Below are positions 34,020 through 41,212 of a stretch of 64,000 nucleotides of DNA, piece after piece. Every line of letters starts with the position of its first letter. Within the stretch, counting starts at the first letter, position 1. The DNA comes from Modestobacter marinus (GTDB lineage: Bacteria > Actinomycetota > Actinomycetes > Mycobacteriales > Geodermatophilaceae): positions 682,001 through 746,000 of the forward strand of contig NZ_JAAMPA010000002.1 in NCBI RefSeq assembly GCF_011758655.1, in the 5' to 3' direction. A program made the translations under genes and the position numbers. Below the pieces are notes generated by a model. That model had not been told where the DNA came from and searched no databases. It saw only the letters and a program-made list of their open reading frames with translations.

Positions 34020-34440
34020 TCCCGGCCGTCGCCGCTCTCGCGTCGTGCGCCGGGGGCGAACAGAGCCTCGCGAGGGCGAGCGAAGCCGGCCGAGCAGAGC
34101 CGGCAAGGCGGAGCCGGCGAAGCCCGGCCGAACCGGGTCTGCCGAGCAGAGCCGGGCCCGGCCGAGCCGGTAGAGCCGGGGCCGGGCTGGGCTGGCAAAG
34201 CCGGGCTGAGCCAAGCCAAGCCGGCAAAGCCCGGCCGAGCCGGGCCTGGCCGAGCCGGGCCAAGCTGGGCCGAGCCTGCGAACCCAGGCGGGCTGAGCCG
34301 GGCCGGGCCAAGCCAAGCCGGGCCGAGCCGAGCCGAGCCGAGCCGAGCCGAGCCGAGCCGAGCCGAGCCGAGCCGAGCCTGCGAACCCAGGCGGGCTGAG
34401 CCGGGCCGAGCTGAGCCGGCCGAGCCCGGGTGGGCAGCGC
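34020..34440. repeat. GAGCC-type 5-bp repeat tract with a 34-bp direct repeat (519 nt without a gene)
   Basis: The spacer 34009-34527 is made largely of GCCGA/GAGCC-like 5-mers, regular from 34322 to 34375 (about ten perfect units). A 34-bp segment starting GAGCCTGCGAACCCAGGCGG occurs at 34272-34305 and again at 34375-34408, flanking the array; it contains a GCCTG/CAGGC hairpin. No supported gene. Confidence 0.88.
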
Positions 34441-34527: not shown

Positions 34528-35820
34528 GTGACGACGACGGCGATCCCCTCAGGCCCGTGGCGGGGTCTGATCGACATCGTCTTCACCGGTGACTGGCACC
34601 GCCACAACGGTGCAGTGCCCGCCGACGAGCGGCTGGCCACCCGGTTGCGGGGCGTGCAGCGGCGGCGGGCGATGGCCGCCGCCGAGGAGGCCGAGCTGAT
34701 CCTGGAGCTGGCCGGCCACCGGCCCGCCGCCCTGGACCCCGACGGCCCCGGAGCCCGACGGCCCGGGTGGGCCAATGAACCCGGTGGTGAGGAGATCAGT
34801 GAGTTCTTCCTCGCCGAACTCGCCACCGTCCTCAACCTCGGTCGGGGGACGGCGGCGGTCCGGCTGCGACGGGCGCTGACCTGGTCGAGGAAGCTACCGG
34901 CCACCTTCGCCGCCCTGGCCACCGGGGAACTGGACGAACGCCGCGCCCAGGTACTGGCCGATGTCCTGGAGCACACCCACGCCCAGCTCGCCGGCCAGGT
35001 GGAGGCCGCATTGTTGGACCAGGCGCGGGACCTGTCGGTCGCGCGGCTGGAGAAACGCGCCACCGAAGAACTGCTCCGCCTGGACGCCGCCGCCAGTGAG
35101 GAACGCCAGGCCGAAGCCGCGAAGTCCGCCGACGTACGCCTCTACCCCTCAGGGATCGACGGCCGGTCCACGTTGGCCGCGGACCTGCCCACCGACGAGG
35201 CCGCCGAATGCCACGACCTGCTCGACCAACTCGCCCGGATGCTCAAAGCCGACGGCGACCCCCGCCCGATCGGGGCGCTGCGGGCGCACGTGCTCTCGGC
35301 GCTGATCCGCCGCCCCGCCGACACCGGCCTGCCCGCGGTGGCCGCCCACCTCACCATCACCGCCGACCTGCACGCCCTCACCGGGACCAGCAGCACACCG
35401 GGTGAGGTCAACGGCCTGCCGATCACCGCCGCCCACCTGCGCGAACTCCTCGCCCGGGTCGGCGCCCTCGGCCTCACCACCCCCGAGGGCGGCACCCTGA
35501 CCTACGCCCTCACCGGCCCGAACGGGCAGCTGCTGGCCACGCTCACCCCCACCGAACTCGCCCGCCTGGCCCGCCGCAGCTGCCCGACCCACACAGACCC
35601 ATCCAGCTGCGAGTGCGCAGTGCTCGGACCGCCGCCACCGACCGACGCCTACACCCCGACCGACCGCCAACGCGCCTTCGTCCTCACCCGCGACCAACGC
35701 TGCCGGTTCCCCAACTGCGGCCAACGCGTCGGCTGGACCGACCTCGACCACGTCACCGCCCACGCCTGCGGCGGAGCCACCGACTGCACCAACCTCAGCC
35801 ATACCCAGGACCACCCCTGA
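34528..35820 (+). pseudogene. DUF222-HNH endonuclease, 5' part (split by an integrated element)
   Basis: Encodes 430 aa: a DUF222 helical region (~20-340) and the first part of an HNH domain (RFPNCGQRVGWTDLDHVTAH, then a Cys/Asn turn). After codon 423 (Leu of TNL, base 35796) the sequence changes to element DNA and stops after SHTQDHP, losing the CCLCRSHH end. The missing 78 codons lie at 40595-40828 in frame. HNH proteins of this type occur in many actinobacterial copies; their role is unclear. The current truncated product probably cannot cut DNA. Confidence 0.9.
35789..35796. other. attL core (CCAACCTC)
   Basis: Identical to the 8 bp at 40587-40594 while the bases on either side differ, marking the crossover of a site-specific insertion. 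Next to it, on the element side, is GCCATACCCA (35798-35807), an inverted partner of TGGGTGGC at the right end. Confidence 0.82.
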
Positions 35821-35946
35821 CGGTCTGCCCGTGCCCTGGGGCGGCGGAGAGCGGCCGACTCGTCCGCTAGGTGACACCAGCACCGACCACCTTGGAGATC
35901 ACCGAGGTTCGCGCGGCGCCAAGCTCACCTTGGGTGGGCTCAGCCG

Positions 35947-37374
35947 CTACCCACGACTAGCTTTCCAAGAGACCTCGGCCGCAGCGAGTAGCTGAGCCAT
36001 GCCACCCGCGACCTGCCCGTCCACCCATCCGGCTACTTTCAGGCGCAGGGTGGCCGACACCGCAGGGACAATCTCCCTAAGAGCGACCTCCAGCACCTCG
36101 TCGTTCACATCGGAAGCGATAGCGAAGTCAGAAGATGCCTCAGGCGTATTCCTAACAAAGACAGCCAGACCGAGAAAGAGTTGGGCTCTCGCTGGCGGAG
36201 CACTGGACAAGACCAAGTGCGTATTCGCCTGACGCGCAGCCTGCCTATAAGAGGTTGGATTCTTCGGCATTGACGAGAGCCGTTGAACGCGGACGGTGAT
36301 CATTTCGGAACGCGGAAGGGCCTCCACCTGCGCTTGAAGCTCGTCGTGCAAAAGTTTCGCCAGCCGCACTGCTGCTGTGTCGAACTCGGCTTCTGAGGTT
36401 GTGGACGCATAAAAGCGTTCCATGGCTGCCAGGCTCAGTGCGGCTGACTGAACATCTGGGTGAACGCTCGCGCAGACAACTCCCACGGTGTCCACCACGC
36501 ACGACTCAATAAAATTGATGAACAGTCGGGAATTCCCTGCGTCAGCCGCCTCTAGTGCATCAAGATACTGGTCGCGCTGATCTGCGAAGACCACTAGCGG
36601 AACACCGGGGCGTCGGTACAGGAAGGCCGAAGATAGCGCACGAGCGACCCGCCCGTTGCCGTCTGCGAACGGGTGTATGCACACGTAGGCGTAGTGGGCA
36701 TAGGCGGCTTGAGTCACCGGGTGTGCTTGCTGGAAGGCGTCTGACCGCAACTCATCCACAAGTCGTGCCATTTCAGCTCCCACATCTGAGACGGGCGCGT
36801 AGTGATGGATGCGCCCCGTGCTCGCGTTCGAGGGATTGTTAGGCATCGTCTTGTACGTACCCTTGGGGAGAGGGCGTTGCTGCGGCCCTACAGGCGTATA
36901 GACGGTATACGTCTCCTGGCTGGCGCAAATGGTGGCATGGAGCTGTCGAATCCACACCTCGCTCACTGGCGCACTTTCGGTGGCCGCGTCTAGCACAAAC
37001 TCGTAGGCCCTCAGTGCGTCATCGATTGCGCGAACTACGTGCTCCCCGCGAGAAGCGACCGTAGCTTCCCAAGCTGCCGCCTGAGTGGCCACGGTTCGCG
37101 TAAATCCTCGATCTACCTGATACAGGCCCTCGATGGCTCCTGTATCCACGGCCGCCGACCTCGTGGCGGTGACCACTGCGGCGGTGAGAGCTGCCTCGCC
37201 CGCCACCTCCCGCCGCTGCTGCAACAATGCTTCATTGCGCGCGAATACGGAGTCTTCGAATTCGCCCGCATCCCATTCGGAGAAAGATGGAAACGGGCGA
37301 TAACTTGTTGAGTGTTCCGTTGTGGGCGGCTCGCCATGCTGTCCGACGTTCTGATCCTGCTCACCCATTTCCAT
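35947..37374 (-). CDS. Fic family AMP-transferase with N-terminal inhibitory motif
   Basis: A 475-aa Fic protein. Residues ~75-85 contain TGAIEG (T78-G83), matching the inhibitory (S/T)xxxE(G/N) motif of class II Fic enzymes. The catalytic loop HPFADGNGR lies at 234-242 with His, Asp/Asn and Arg intact; the flap region is near TYKTMPNNPSN. The C-terminal ~200 residues are helical and include a winged-helix-like end. Likely adds AMP (or a related group) to a hydroxyl of a target protein when inhibition is released. Cargo of the element; markedly lower GC and different codon use from the host. ATG at 37374, or the third codon. Confidence 0.9.
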   Translation of the reverse strand: MEMGEQDQNVGQHGEPPTTEHSTSYRPFPSFSEWDAGEFEDSVFARNEALLQQRREVAGEAALTAAVVTATRSAAVDTGAIEGLYQVDRGFTRTVATQAAAWEATVASRGEHVVRAIDDALRAYEFVLDAATESAPVSEVWIRQLHATICASQETYTVYTPVGPQQRPLPKGTYKTMPNNPSNASTGRIHHYAPVSDVGAEMARLVDELRSDAFQQAHPVTQAAYAHYAYVCIHPFADGNGRVARALSSAFLYRRPGVPLVVFADQRDQYLDALEAADAGNSRLFINFIESCVVDTVGVVCASVHPDVQSAALSLAAMERFYASTTSEAEFDTAAVRLAKLLHDELQAQVEALPRSEMITVRVQRLSSMPKNPTSYRQAARQANTHLVLSSAPPARAQLFLGLAVFVRNTPEASSDFAIASDVNDEVLEVALREIVPAVSATLRLKVAGWVDGQVAGGMAQLLAAAEVSWKASRG

Positions 37375-37941
37375 CGCTACAACCTAGACGGATGCGCCGC
37401 CGGCGGTCGCAGTCCGGGGCGCTTGCCCAATGAAGCAACCAACATTGAGCTGTCCTGGCGTCCACCCCCCCGGCCCCCCGGTAGTGAGTGCATTTGCCGC
37501 GGGGGTCGTCGTGGTGCACGGGTCTGCCCGAAGGGTCGCCCGGAGGGCGCCCGTGCGCTGCGTCGGCACCTGTGGCGCCCTCGACGGACGGGGGGACGGC
37601 CGCAGGTCGCGGCTGGAGGGTGCGCAGCGCCCGAGTCGCGGCCTGTGGCCGACCCCGCCCCGAGCGGGCGTTCTGGGCGGCGACCCCGAAGGGGTCGCCT
37701 CTTGACCCTCCTCCTGCACTAACTCAACACGCGTCTGGCCTGCGGCTGCTTCCGCTCGCGCCAGGGCTCGTGTCACTATGTCGACTGCACCCCGGGGTCC
37801 ATCGAGGCAAACCCCGCCCGGGACAAGCCACTTACAGGGGATCGGCCCGCGAGACGACATCACAGATGCGTCCCCGACCGGCGGCCGACCGGCGGGCGAC
37901 AACGCACATCTGTCGCGTCCCGTCGTCTCCCTGGAAGCCTC
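37375..37941. other. Gene-poor GC-rich stretch of the element with a hairpin at 37679-37699
   Basis: 567 nt without a convincing gene. The perfect 9-bp hairpin GGCGACCCC-GAA-GGGGTCGCC is at 37679-37699, and G/C-rich inverted segments also occur around 37535-37560. It lies between Fic and the rep side and could hold a terminator for incoming transcripts or a replication origin; neither can be proven. A 73-codon frame at 37778-37999 has no known relatives and is not called. Confidence 0.4.
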
Positions 37942-38037
37942 ATGTTCGCTCGTTCCACGCGTGCCCGCGCTGTCTGCTGTGGCCGCCCCGTCTCCCTGAC
38001 CGACGCTTCCGGCCGCGTCCGTGTCTGCGCCCGCTGA
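37942..38037 (+). CDS. Possible 31-aa cysteine-containing peptide upstream of rep
   Basis: MFARSTRARAVCCGRPVSLT followed by a short end with one more cysteine. Cys-rich short proteins are frequent just before Rep genes in actinobacterial elements. It overlaps the proposed rep start by 17 nt in another frame. No strong ribosome site, so support is weak. Confidence 0.3.
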   Translation: MFARSTRARAVCCGRPVSLTDASGRVRVCAR

Positions 38038-38992
38038 GCCGGCGCGCCGTCATGTCCAACCATCGGAAGAGAAGCCGGGGTGCGTCTGCCCGCCGGGCGT
38101 CCGAGGCCTGCGCGTGGTGGGCTACCTGCCTGCAGGCGGCGTCGATGGGTTGGACTGCACTTCGCCCCTGCTCGTCGTGTGTCGCGTCTGCGACCGTCGT
38201 CTCGTCTGGGCTTGCCGGGCACACCGGGCTTCCCGATGCGTGCCCTGCTCCGACCGATACCGACGGCTGCTCGTCCGGATAGCGGAGTCCCGTACCGCGA
38301 CGGCGCACCGTGGCCACGGCAGCTTCCTGACGTTGACCGCGCCGGGTGAACGCGCGCACGCCCGGTGGGTCCCTGGTCGGCCTGGTGGCGGTGGTCCCTG
38401 TGGCTGCCGGGTCGGGGACTTGGCGGAGTGGAACGCGGCTGCCGGTCAGTCGTGGAACCGCTTGCGGTTGGGCCTCTCGCGGGTGAGCCGGTTCGAGTAT
38501 TTCCGGGTGGTTGAGGTCCAGAAGCGCGGCGCGCTGCACCTGCACGTCCTGGTGTGGTCTGCCGAGCCGCTGCGACGCGACCAGGTCCAGCGGATCGCGC
38601 TAGCTGCTGGGTTCGGCTGTCAGGTAGACCTGACGCCCCTGTCGCCTCAGCAGCACGCCCGCTACGCGGCGAAGTACGCCACGAAAGCCACCGATCAGCG
38701 CGGAGACGCTCCCTGGGCGGTCGACGTGGTGAACACCCGCACCGGAGAGGTCACCCGAGGCAGCGCGCCTGCGCGGTATCGCACCTGGTCGTCCTCGCGG
38801 CAGTGGGGGCTCACGGTGCGGGACGTGCGAGCGGCCAACCGCGCCGCCATGGAGAACACGCGGCTCACCCGAGCCGCCGCCGCAGCGTCGACCGACCAAC
38901 CGGCCCCGTCGGCGGCGATCGGACCGACCTCGCCAGCTGCCGAGTCCAGCCGGGATAGCAGGCCTACTGCGGTGAAGCTCGCATGGAGTTGA
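38021..38992 (+). CDS. RepSA-like rolling-circle replication initiator
   Basis: A 323-aa protein with features of the pSAM2 RepSA family. A zinc-finger-like part (CRVCDRRLVWACRAHRASRC and VPCSDRYRRLL), then FLTLTAPGERAHARW, the HUH-like strand FRVVEVQKRGALHLHVLVW, and the candidate catalytic tyrosine region HARYAAKYATKATDQ. It would nick the element's origin and allow replication as a circle. The start is uncertain (GTG 38021 or a later codon). Ends overlapping the next small frame by 10 nt. Confidence 0.8.
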   Translation: MSAPAEPARRHVQPSEEKPGCVCPPGVRGLRVVGYLPAGGVDGLDCTSPLLVVCRVCDRRLVWACRAHRASRCVPCSDRYRRLLVRIAESRTATAHRGHGSFLTLTAPGERAHARWVPGRPGGGGPCGCRVGDLAEWNAAAGQSWNRLRLGLSRVSRFEYFRVVEVQKRGALHLHVLVWSAEPLRRDQVQRIALAAGFGCQVDLTPLSPQQHARYAAKYATKATDQRGDAPWAVDVVNTRTGEVTRGSAPARYRTWSSSRQWGLTVRDVRAANRAAMENTRLTRAAAAASTDQPAPSAAIGPTSPAAESSRDSRPTAVKLAWS

Positions 38993-39252
38993 GTCGCGAG
39001 GCCGTCGCGGCCTGGCTGAGCGCATCGTGCGCCGAGCAGGGCGTTCCGGTGCTAGTCACCGACCCGCACGTGCTGGCGAAGGTGGCCGCACTGCTGTCCT
39101 CGCCCACGGCAGCCTCTGACACCACACGAAGTACGGTCCCAAGTCGATCGCGGGGCAGGTCACAGGCGCCAGATCGGCCGAACACGGGTCGGGTCCAGGG
39201 AACGGCTGCCCGGCTGACCGGGAGCGATGACGGCGTGGTCGAGAACCGCTGA
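38983..39252 (+). CDS. Small element protein downstream of rep
   Basis: An 89-aa frame beginning MELSREAVAAWLSASCAEQG, then VPVLVTDPHVLAKVAALLSS. The ATG at 38983 overlaps the rep stop by 10 nt, suggesting coupled translation. The N-terminal ~40 residues look like a genuine helical domain; the rest is low-complexity and overlaps the 3' end of the recombinase gene by 93 nt on the other strand, so its true end is doubtful. An excisionase role is possible by position only. Confidence 0.5.
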   Translation: MELSREAVAAWLSASCAEQGVPVLVTDPHVLAKVAALLSSPTAASDTTRSTVPSRSRGRSQAPDRPNTGRVQGTAARLTGSDDGVVENR

Positions 39253-40563
39253 GACGATGGCCGCCTGCCGCGTGAGGTTGAGTTCAGGCCATTGCTCGCG
39301 GAGTGGACCGCTGTTGCCGGGCAGACCGGCCAGCGCGTCGGTGCTCGTTGCCGCCGACAGCTGCCGCTGCCGGTCGGTCATGCGCCGCTCGATCGGTTCC
39401 CTGGCCGCTCGCCATTCGCGGGCGCTGATCTCCTGCTTGCCGAACATCACCGCCAACTCGTCCAGCTGCTCCTGGTCGGCGGCCAGGCCGTCGCTGAGCT
39501 CGAGCGCCACCACGTCACCGCTCCGACCGGTGAGAGTCTGGGCCAGGTGGGGGCTGTCGAGGCGCTGCAAGACCGCTTCGACCAGCAGCTGCTCGACCGG
39601 TTCAGCCACGACGGTCAATCGTCCGCACCCGCCGCCGTGATCCGGGCCGGACACGCACACGTAGCGGCGCGTGTCGCCTCGCGGGGAGGAGAACAACTTC
39701 CCTCCGCACCGCCCGCAGCGCAGTAAGCCCGACAGCAAATACCGACGCGGTGACCGGCGGCCGGTCACCGCCGCCTCCGCCATTCGAGCCAGCACCCGGT
39801 CCCGGTCGGCCGGGCTGATGATCGCGTCCCACACCGCCGGGCCGACCACCTCGCCCCGGTGCTCCCGCAGCCCAGCGATCCGGCCCGACTTCAGCACACC
39901 CCGCAGGGAAGGGCTGTGCCACTCCACCCCGGTCGTGGTCCTCACCCCGTTGGCCTCCAGCCAGCTGCACAGGGACCGCGAGCTCTCCCCGGCCAGGTAG
40001 CGGGCCACCAGCTGCCGGATCACCTCGGCCTCCTTCGGCCGAACCGTCACCCGGTCGTCTTCGTAGCCGAACGGCCGCCGATTGCCGCCGTGCGGGCGGC
40101 CTTCGGCAGCGATCTGCTCCAACTTCCGGAGCACTCGCCGGCTCTTCGCCGCTGACTCGTTCGCTGCCACCGCCGCCATGATCCTTCCGATCAGCAAGCC
40201 GTCCCCGGTGCCCAGGTCCATGTCCCCGGACACGAACCGGACCTGCCGCACGCCGGCGGCGTCCACGGTGGCCACGAACTGCTCCAACTCCACCGGTCGG
40301 CGGGTCAGCCGGTCCACGTGATAGCAGATCACCGCGTCCCGCAGCCCGTCTGCTACGTCGGCCAGCAGCTGCTCGTATGCCGGGCGGCGCTTACCCGAGT
40401 ACGCCGACAGATCGTTGTCGACGTACTCCTGAGCCACCGACCAACCCAGACTCTCGGCCAGCCGCCGACAGTCCTCCAACTGTCGGGTCACCCCCAGCGC
40501 CCGACCCTCGGTGTCACTGCTGATCCGCGCGTACACCGCCGCCGCGCTCACCCGTGCTGACAT
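39160..40563 (-). CDS. Large serine recombinase (integrase)
   Basis: A 467-aa site-specific recombinase. N-terminal resolvase domain with the catalytic serine S15 in YARISSD and the RLTRRPVELEQF helix; the Recombinase domain (~165-270, HGGNRRPFGYEDD); a zinc ribbon (LLRCGRCGGKL to SGPDHGGGCGRL); and a coiled-coil C-terminus. It starts 24 nt from attR and reads inward. It should catalyse insertion at CCAACCTC inside the HNH gene; excision would normally need a directionality factor not identified here. ATG at 40563. Confidence 0.94.
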   Translation of the reverse strand: MSARVSAAAVYARISSDTEGRALGVTRQLEDCRRLAESLGWSVAQEYVDNDLSAYSGKRRPAYEQLLADVADGLRDAVICYHVDRLTRRPVELEQFVATVDAAGVRQVRFVSGDMDLGTGDGLLIGRIMAAVAANESAAKSRRVLRKLEQIAAEGRPHGGNRRPFGYEDDRVTVRPKEAEVIRQLVARYLAGESSRSLCSWLEANGVRTTTGVEWHSPSLRGVLKSGRIAGLREHRGEVVGPAVWDAIISPADRDRVLARMAEAAVTGRRSPRRYLLSGLLRCGRCGGKLFSSPRGDTRRYVCVSGPDHGGGCGRLTVVAEPVEQLLVEAVLQRLDSPHLAQTLTGRSGDVVALELSDGLAADQEQLDELAVMFGKQEISAREWRAAREPIERRMTDRQRQLSAATSTDALAGLPGNSGPLREQWPELNLTRQAAIVSAVLDHAVIAPGQPGSRSLDPTRVRPIWRL

Positions 40564-40582
40564 GGGGGCAGACTAGCGATGG

Positions 40583-40828
40583 GTGGCCAACCTCTGCTGC
40601 CTGTGCCGCTCCCACCACCGACTCAAGACCTTCGCCCCCGGTTGGCACTTCGCCATCGACGACGACGGCACCTTGCACGTCACCACCCCCAGCGGCGTCA
40701 CCCGCACCACCCGACCACCCGGGATGCGAGCACTGAGCCAACGCGCTGGAGCAGCCGATCCACCTCCTGGAGACGACTCGCCACCGGCGGCGGTCCGCTC
40801 ACCCGTCGACGACCCCCCGCCCTTTTGA
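40583..40828 (+). pseudogene. DUF222-HNH endonuclease, 3' part
   Basis: The first host codon is 40595: CCLCRSHHRLKTFAPGWHF, then IDDDGTLHVTTPSGVTRTTR and a Pro-rich end, 78 codons with the stop. It supplies the second Cys pair and the HH of the HNH domain missing from 34528-35820. A GTG at 40583, in element DNA, could allow translation as an 81-aa fragment (VANLCCLCRS), but this alone is not an enzyme. Confidence 0.9.
40587..40594. other. attR core (CCAACCTC)
   Basis: Second copy of the 8-bp core. On the element side is TGGGTGGC (40580-40587), which pairs imperfectly with GCCATACCCA at the left end when the ends are joined as attP. Confidence 0.82.
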
Positions 40829-40902: not shown

Positions 40903-41212
40903 GCTGCTCGACGCCCAGGAGCTGCTCGACGCCCGGAGACGAGCTCGGCGCCCGGGAGATGCTCAACGCCCGGAGAGAAATTTGCCGCCCGCAGGCGAAC
41001 TTGCCGCCCGGGGGCGAACTTGCCGCCCGGGGGCGAACTCTGCGTGCGGGGGCAGCTCGGCGTCCGAGGGCAGCTCGGGGTCCGGGGCAGCTCGGCGTCC
41101 GGGGGCAGTTCGACGTCCGGGGGCAGTTCGACGTCCGGGGGCAGTTCGACGTCCGGGGGCAGTTCGACGTCCGGGGGCAGTTCGACGTCCGGGGGCAGTT
41201 CGACGTCCGGGG
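40903..41212. repeat. 18-19-bp tandem array between the HNH remainder and lysE
   Basis: Six exact 18-bp copies of GCAGTTCGACGTCCGGGG at 41105-41212, preceded by diverged 18-bp and 19-bp units back to about 40903. It fills the 385-nt spacer 40829-41213 and ends 2 nt before the lysE stop codon. No spacers, so not CRISPR. Confidence 0.92.

What the first reader, a model, noticed from the sequence alone, without database searches (positions are those of the whole stretch)
35789..40594. 4.8-kb element inserted exactly inside the HNH motif of a DUF222 endonuclease gene; excision would restore 500 aa
The same 8 bp CCAACCTC stand at 35789-35796 and 40587-40594, and flanking bases differ at once. Codons 1-423 end at 35796; joining to 40595 continues TNL directly into CCLCRSHH and 78 more codons in frame. 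A large serine recombinase starts 24 nt from the right end. The target lies between conserved N and H codons of a multi-copy gene family, so the integrase may have many homologous attB sites in one genome.
Basis: partly seen in the sequence, partly recalled or inferred. Interest (0 to 1): 0.8.

Follow-up and report, generated by a model that had tools for sequence, protein, structure and literature searches.

The report
Mini mobile element inside HNH codon
A 4.8-kb piece of mobile DNA has inserted itself into the catalytic asparagine codon of a nuclease gene in an actinobacterium, and relatives of its integrase often break genes for DNA uptake, which hints that this unexplained nuclease family may also be tied to DNA uptake.

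Summary
A 4,798-bp element (35791-40588) splits a DUF222-HNH gene that is unbroken at the syntenic locus of a same-genus species and in a paralogue of this genome. It encodes a large serine integrase, a RepSA-like HUH protein, a small conserved protein S and a Fic protein. Relatives insert into the same AAC codon, for the middle N of H-N-H; the symmetric attP centres on that AA (14 elements: 13.1 of 25 matches, shuffles 7.2). Mycobacterial relatives lie in the opposite orientation. Sister elements carry other cargo; one has a complete Thoeris set. Serine integrases in DUF222-type genes are a known kind (phiRv1 in REP13E12; possibly Frankia AICE Faln2929), so this is a Tra-less variant. Newer is the target pattern: of 50 insertions by this integrase family across the order, 20 hit DUF222 and 26 transformation genes (TadA, TadC, ComM, ComEC, ComEA), against 1 of 26 other serine-integrase loci; but 17 of 28 loci from named genomes, Streptomyces above all, have other or unidentified targets. 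DUF222 is hit at four different sites. This suggests, without showing it, that DUF222-HNH proteins act in DNA uptake or against mobile DNA.

The parts
34528..35820 (+). N-terminal part of the DUF222-HNH gene (codons 1-423 up to 35796; reads on into the element to a stop at 35818-35820)
   Evidence: PF02720 E 2e-11; intact homologues
35789..35796 (+). left core CCAACCTC of attL; likely crossover AA at 35791-35792
35793..35817 (+). distal arm of attP (25 nt outward from the AA centre)
   Evidence: symmetry with the proximal arm, 13 of 25 matches, best of the offsets tried
35947..37374 (-). Fic-domain protein, 475 aa (cargo; possible toxin or defence protein)
   Evidence: PF02661 E 2.7e-17; PADLOC SoFic 3.9e-22 and PDC-S04 2.1e-15
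38021..38992 (+). RepSA-like HUH rolling-circle replication initiator, 323 aa
   Evidence: PF20199 E 2.6e-13, PF23343 E 2.6e-10
38983..39252 (+). small protein S (89 aa, about 40 conserved); overlaps the rep stop codon and the int 3' end; candidate recombination directionality factor
   Evidence: S profile found in the DUF222-Asn elements; two-helix model, mean pLDDT 68.9, pTM 0.29
39160..40563 (-). large serine integrase, 467 aa (Resolvase + Recombinase + Zn ribbon)
   Evidence: PF00239 1.7e-26, PF07508 9.9e-11, PF13408 7.7e-11; PHROG 95 integrase 3.2e-88
40564..40588 (+). integrase-proximal arm of attP (25 nt up to the AA centre)
40587..40594 (+). right core CCAACCTC of attR; likely crossover AA at 40589-40590
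40595..40828 (+). C-terminal part of the DUF222-HNH gene (CCLCRSHH ..., 77 codons and stop)
   Evidence: HNH profile 55-89; syntenic C part 90% over 39 aa

Best explanation
It is a small integrative element, a Tra-less relative of actinomycete integrative elements. Its serine integrase recombined a symmetric attP (25 + AA + 25 nt) with an attB inside a DUF222-HNH gene, with crossover at the AA of the AAC codon for the middle N of the H-N-H motif. The insertion breaks the nuclease gene, and excision would restore it. Shown here by sequence: the insertion, the empty site, the same codon in relatives, the two-fold symmetry of attP and the two orientations in the family. Inferred: AA is the crossover dinucleotide, and its polarity (AA or TT as read from int) sets the orientation; Rep replicates the excised circle; S is the directionality factor; Fic is cargo that helps keep the element or protects the cell; transfer needs a helper, because no Tra is present. 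Also inferred: the family gains by breaking genes that let cells lose integrated DNA through transformation, and DUF222-HNH is one more such gene.
For: Syntenic empty site and intact paralogue. Both HNH halves collinear at the ends of 11 window-type elements (window, L100, L101, L013, L102, L015, L107, L110, L111, L113, L116) and of three elements of the opposite orientation. All 14 share the AA of the Asn codon at both ends; no neighbouring dinucleotide is shared by all 14 (read from the output). Mean attP symmetry 13.1/25 at AA; of 24 other offsets the best is -8 with 10.0 and the rest are at most 7.4; shuffled arms 7.2 +/- 0.58, highest 9.7 in 2,000. Targets of 50 distinct insertions in the order-wide sample: DUF222 20, TadA 12, ComM 8, TadC 3, ComEC 2, ComEA 1, MgsA/RarA 1, unresolved 3. 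Control: 1 of 26 other serine-integrase loci had such a target. Tree: the clade with all DUF222-Asn rows (20 such rows, 2 unresolved; support 100/99) is sister to a TadA-inserting pair.
Against: No excision, circle or integrase activity was observed. AA is the best centre in 9 of 14 elements only; in five another offset is as good or better (L100, L102, L107 and L111 at -8, L015 at +3). attB shows no clear symmetry at AA (mean 8.1, less than 9.5 at +1 and 8.7 at +4). Of the 28 loci from named genomes 17 have no identified target of these kinds: L020 and L021, close to the DUF222-inserting mycobacterial ones, seven Streptomyces-type loci (L022-L027, L030), and L028, L031-L035, L038, L039, the last two not examined. 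So the pattern is not universal. S is not found in the held stretches of most relatives that hit other genes. LSR targeting of competence genes is a general trend in print (PMC10083194), so the tie of DUF222 to transformation rests on association only.
Confidence: 0.85

Rival explanations
1. The target choice is about sequence conservation only: the integrase family uses codons that hardly change (HNH Asn, Walker A of TadA, ComM motif) in common non-essential genes, and the loss of the gene product is neutral. DUF222 then says nothing about transformation.
For: Sites lie at conserved motifs: HNH Asn codon, Walker A GKTTLL, ComM GSGFDL, ComEC AVSGAN. DUF222 genes are common: 11 profile rows, about 10 genes, in this genome. 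Many loci of named genomes hit none of these genes (17 of 28).
Against: Within DUF222 four different sites are used (about aa 129, 383, 422 and 437 in window numbering), and ComM too is hit at more than one place (GSGFDL motif; near the end of the AAA part in L036; elsewhere in L143). TadA, TadC, ComEA, ComEC and ComM share a pathway, not a motif.
Confidence: 0.45
2. DUF222-HNH proteins are defence nucleases against plasmids or integrative elements, and the element disarms one copy by inserting into it.
For: HNH nuclease motif and many divergent paralogues per genome; targeting by elements with rolling-circle Rep.
Against: Paralogues remain intact in the same genome, so disarming would be partial; the sister targets are uptake genes, not defence genes; Durrant et al. 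report no enrichment of LSR targets within or near anti-phage defence genes (PMC10083194, passages).
Confidence: 0.25
3. The element is a decayed fragment, now immobile, and the split gene is simply a pseudogene.
For: No transfer gene found; only four ORFs with family matches or conservation; no experimental excision.
Against: Integrase, Rep and S are open and keep the family pattern; core and both attP arms are intact; nine of the ten other window-type elements are 3.1-5.4 kb (L116 is 8.6 kb) and carry int with different cargo.
Confidence: 0.12

Closest known systems
phiRv1 of Mycobacterium tuberculosis in REP13E12
   Same: Serine recombinase; lies in REP13E12 (PMC9317374, passage). The core GGTTGGCCGTGG in Table 1 of PMC3986857 (passage) reads CCACGGCCAACC on the other strand and holds the same GGCCAACC as the right end here. 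REP13E12, HNH endonuclease and DUF222 are named together in PMC10589994 (passage).
   Different: 9.3 kb (PMC3986857) and PICI-like (PMC10654092, passage), versus 4.8 kb with Rep and Fic and no capsid found. The phiRv1 integrase and locus were not fetched or compared.
AICE Faln2929 of Frankia alni (PMC3218068, passages)
   Same: Serine recombinase gene convergent with tra and a RepSA-type rep; disrupts a putative endonuclease gene; excision detected although no directionality factor was identified.
   Different: Has a tra gene. Its sequence was not compared here, so kinship is possible but untested, and whether its target is DUF222 is not stated in the passages.
AICE-like elements lacking tra or rep (PMC3218068, passage)
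   Same: [quoted passage not shown] the window element too lacks tra.
   Different: The passage says that Frankia AICEs other than Faln2929 integrate into tRNA genes by tyrosine recombinases; those elements were not compared.
Elements inserted in competence genes (PMC4774983) and LSR target genes enriched in competence genes (PMC10083194)
   Same: Relatives of this integrase sit in ComM, ComEC, ComEA, TadA and TadC.
   Different: DUF222 is not among the targets in the passages read; the word occurs 0 times in the main text of PMC10083194 (supplements not readable here).

Membership tests
Large serine recombinase (serine integrase) | Resolvase + Recombinase + Zn ribbon domains in a protein of about 450-700 aa (size range recalled) | tested here: met
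   all three Pfam domains over cut-off, 467 aa; PHROG 95
Large serine recombinase (serine integrase) | recombination of attP with attB | not testable with these tools
   only the products attL and attR and the empty site were seen
DUF222 / 13E12 HNH family (target gene) | DUF222 domain followed by a C-terminal HNH motif | tested here: met
   PF02720 E 2e-11; HNH profile on both halves
AICE | RepSA, RepAM or Prim-Pol replication gene | tested here: met
   RepSA PF20199 E 2.6e-13
AICE | FtsK/SpoIIIE-like Tra | tested here: not met
   no such domain in the four ORFs scanned; an FtsK-like protein is present in the relative L108
AICE | excision with Int, usually helped by an Xis | tested here: inconclusive
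   Int present; S is only a candidate directionality factor
phiRv1-like prophage / PICI | capsid or other virion gene | tested here: not met
   PHROGs scan of the four element ORFs finds none
phiRv1-like prophage / PICI | insertion at the REP13E12 core by a phiRv1-type integrase | tested here: inconclusive
   core letters agree with the Asn-Leu codons, but the phiRv1 locus and integrase were not fetched

The most novel reading that the evidence does not exclude
DUF222-HNH (13E12) proteins, a large family of unknown function in Actinobacteria, are part of or gate natural transformation. Elements of this integrase family have evolved more than once to break them, for the same reason that they break TadA, TadC, ComEA, ComEC and ComM: to stop the cell from losing the element by transformation. 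The integrase lineage switches target gene, and flips orientation by turning the central AA of attP into TT, and the elements carry exchangeable defence cargo.
Probability: 0.3. Interest if true: 0.85.

Novelty: new variant of a known kind. Interest (0 to 1): 0.6.

Why it matters
The element itself is a compact, well-bounded integrase module with a predicted 52-bp attP and crossover codon. The family context gives a testable lead on what DUF222/13E12 genes do: REP13E12 regions are said to lack a defined function (PMC13061034, passage). The family also offers a natural series of related integrases that differ in target gene and orientation, useful for learning how serine integrases change targets, and a set of mostly 3-5-kb elements that carry defence-like genes.

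Tried and rejected
The 8-bp repeat as evidence on its own: rejected, since it occurs 146 times in the genome. Crossover in the next codon: considered, because 10 of 11 window-type elements share its first two letters at both ends, but L101 and two of the three opposite-orientation elements do not, while AA is shared by all 14. G248a was first placed 4 nt off and corrected. A hairpin upstream of rep (37835-37945) as a replication origin: DNA fold z -1.95, 6 of 200 shuffles fold as well; the repeat finder did not list it, but lists a 26-nt inverted repeat at the same place, between cargo and rep, in L110 (3623-3702), and none there in L111 or L102: left open. S as a universal partner of the integrase: not supported, as it is not found in the held stretches of most relatives that hit TadA or ComM; the S profile was built from 16 of the loci that it then found. 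The S model shows two helices and a low-confidence tail; no fold search was made. G093 (L117) was assigned to DUF222 by eye from a worn C half; the DUF222 gene 5 kb away in that locus has an unbroken HNH motif and is not its other half. Two TadC cases (L138, L139) are by eye; Pfam found nothing in L138. L019 has its N half by eye only. L080 lies beside a Maf gene that does not look broken and was left unresolved, with L103 (by eye a worn HNH end) and L142. The control is not perfect: its flanks are about 1 kb, it took the 30 loci given for the best scores, and rows are related, so the Fisher value (7e-15) overstates. The tree was given 70 integrases; five (L096, L037, L097, L129, L158) were dropped as too short, both ComEC cases of the 50 among them. 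Counting DUF222 gains on that tree: L130 stands apart from the rest but on a long branch; L085/L086 and the Asn clade are parted by a TadA pair, which may be a second gain or one loss.
Full report
What is there. One same-family genome (G381) has a contig of the same length, 49,976 bases, as the Blastococcus sp. MG754426 contig that holds L012, so the host is probably a member of Geodermatophilaceae (inference). A DUF222 gene (34528 on) runs in frame to 35796; its last 77 codons stand at 40595-40828. Joining the two flanks gives 500 aa. Between them are a Fic protein, a RepSA-like HUH initiator, a small ORF S and, facing them, a 467-aa large serine integrase.

Is it an insertion? Yes. The syntenic locus in same-genus genome G016 carries an unbroken gene: helicase orthologue 94%, N part to 4575, C part from 4576, then an SRPBCC-like gene 83%. 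The paralogue L010 in the same genome is unbroken and has the same AAC-CTC site. Of 59 relatives searched with the N part, 29 had a match at E <= 1e-60; of the 29 relatives' loci aligned (L041-L069), 28 show the HNH motif unbroken at the site and L056 departs from it in the frame read.

The family. The integrase has relatives at E <= 1e-60 in 43 of 397 genomes of the order, the window's own included, and in 28 loci of named genomes. Eleven elements, the window one included, have both HNH halves at their ends, with int antisense to the gene and the int-proximal end against the C half. Mycobacterial-type relatives (57-60% identical) have the N half against int, in sense, so they lie the other way round; for three of them the distal C half was found 8.4, 20.9 and 21.7 kb away. 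Two mycobacterial loci, L020 and L021, show no DUF222 flank.

Where the crossover is. Across these 14 elements the only dinucleotide shared by both ends in every case is AA of the codon for the middle N of H-N-H. With AA as centre, the two arms of the reconstructed attP match as an inverted repeat at 13.1 of 25 positions on average; of 24 other offsets the best is -8 with 10.0 and the rest are at most 7.4; shuffled arms give 7.2 +/- 0.58 with a maximum of 9.7 in 2,000. AA ranks first in 9 of 14 elements, second in L100 and L102, third in L015, L107 and L111. The attB halves show no such symmetry (8.1 at AA, 9.5 at +1). Since AA is not its own complement, the simplest account of the two orientations is that attP carries AA in one lineage and TT in the other as read from int. 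That leans on the known rule that the central dinucleotide sets polarity in serine integrases (recalled).

The rest of the element. Rep starts about 650 nt after the Fic start, divergently; S overlaps the Rep stop codon and the int 3' end. An S profile finds S in each of the DUF222-Asn elements whose int 3' side is held, including L105 and L106, where S lies 3-5 kb from int, which argues that S is a real gene and not an echo of int. It was not found in the held stretches of most relatives that hit TadA or ComM, though it was in L115 and L140 (TadA), in L085, and weakly in Streptomyces-type L022-L027 and L030. In pSAM2 the xis gene follows repSA (recalled), so S sits where a directionality factor would sit. 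Faln2929 of Frankia, which has a similar layout, was seen to excise with no directionality factor identified (PMC3218068, passages); S-like proteins are candidates for such a factor.

Cargo. The left part differs between elements: Fic here; in L111 a full Thoeris set (PADLOC ThsB E 3.6e-91, ThsA 1e-131, ThsC 2.3e-70); in L110 an AAA/NACHT-like ATPase (below the Pfam cut-off); in L107 a DndB-like protein (PF14072 E 1.1e-12); in L113 a NOV_C protein (PF13020 E 3e-6). The L100 and L013 cargo proteins scanned matched nothing in Pfam or PADLOC. HUH Rep (PF23343) was confirmed by Pfam in the window, L102 and L110; L107, L111 and L113 have homologues of it by eye; none was recognised in L100, L101, L013 or L015. 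L108, of mycobacterial type, has an FtsK-like protein. So the window element is best seen as a Tra-less integrative element of AICE stock with exchangeable cargo.

Targets of the wider integrase family. All 52 rows were looked at; two are second halves of split integrases (G028, G093; for G028 the merging of two contigs is inferred), leaving 50 insertions. Int-proximal targets: DUF222 20 (one, G093, by eye only), TadA 12, ComM 8, TadC 3 (one by Pfam, two by eye), ComEC 2 (one by eye with a Pfam match below cut-off), ComEA 1, MgsA/RarA 1, unresolved 3. TadA is hit in both orientations, as DUF222 is. In the control, 30 loci of PF07508 integrases out of the matches in 121 genomes, four belong to this family by score (TadA, DUF222, TadA, none) and of the other 26 only L161 has such a target: by reading frame it breaks ComEC at about the same place as L129 and L097. 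Against the pattern, of the 28 named-genome loci only 11 have such a target (DUF222 in L012-L019, with L019 by eye; ComEA in L029; ComM in L036 and L037); 17 do not or were not resolved, among them seven Streptomyces-type loci. On the integrase tree (65 rows of 70 given) the DUF222-Asn rows form a clade with a TadA-inserting pair as sister (100/99); DUF222 is also hit by the pair L085 and L086 and by the distant, long-branched L130, at three other sites (about aa 437, 129 and 383).

What it may mean. In Micrococcus luteus the tad and comEA/EC genes were tied to transformation by deletion (PMC4322843, passages). Elements in comM, comEC, comYC and comFA have been read as a defence of the element against removal by transformation (PMC4774983, passages), and LSR target genes are enriched in competence genes, with a magnesium chelatase-type gene (which I take for ComM) targeted by 12.4% of site-specific integrases (PMC10083194, passages). 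Against this background DUF222 is the one frequent target of this family without a known tie to transformation. I infer, with modest confidence, that DUF222-HNH proteins act in or near that pathway, or otherwise harm the element. The main rival is that conserved codons in dispensable genes are simply good attB sites. A search for papers with both DUF222 and competence gave one, on Legionella in water (listing and start of abstract); DUF222 is not in the main text of PMC10083194, and neither HNH nor DUF222 in that of PMC8467076. The library lacks most subscription papers; Bibb and Hatfull 2002 and 2005 on phiRv1 were seen only in reference lists.

Verdict. The element is a new variant of a known kind (serine-integrase elements in 13E12/DUF222 genes). 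The family-wide target pattern is the more interesting outcome.

Noticed in passing
L111:6249-8055: A related 4.7-kb element carries a complete Thoeris defence set (ThsB TIR, ThsA macro, ThsC HIT) in its cargo part.
   Followed up: partly
L110:1042-3489: Cargo of another related element is an 815-aa AAA/NACHT-like ATPase with a weak effector-associated-domain match near its end; may be an undescribed defence protein.
   Followed up: partly
L091, L131 (both genome G003): Two relatives of the integrase sit next to the Walker A part of TadA genes on two contigs of one genome.
   Followed up: partly
L091/L131 versus L098/L133: Closely related integrases are found in TadA in opposite orientations, like the two DUF222 lineages.
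   Followed up: no
L022-L027, L030: Streptomyces-type relatives with RepSA-like Rep; six of the seven share by eye one unidentified insertion site.
   Followed up: no
window 37835-37945: GC-rich hairpin upstream of rep, a possible replication origin; fold only moderately better than shuffles (z -1.95).
   Followed up: partly
window 34320-34380 and 41060-41200: Short tandem repeats (a GAGCC-type unit and an 18-bp unit) lie on both sides of the split gene.
   Followed up: no
L136:4441-4713: One relative of the integrase is inserted next to the C-terminal part of an MgsA/RarA gene.
   Followed up: partly
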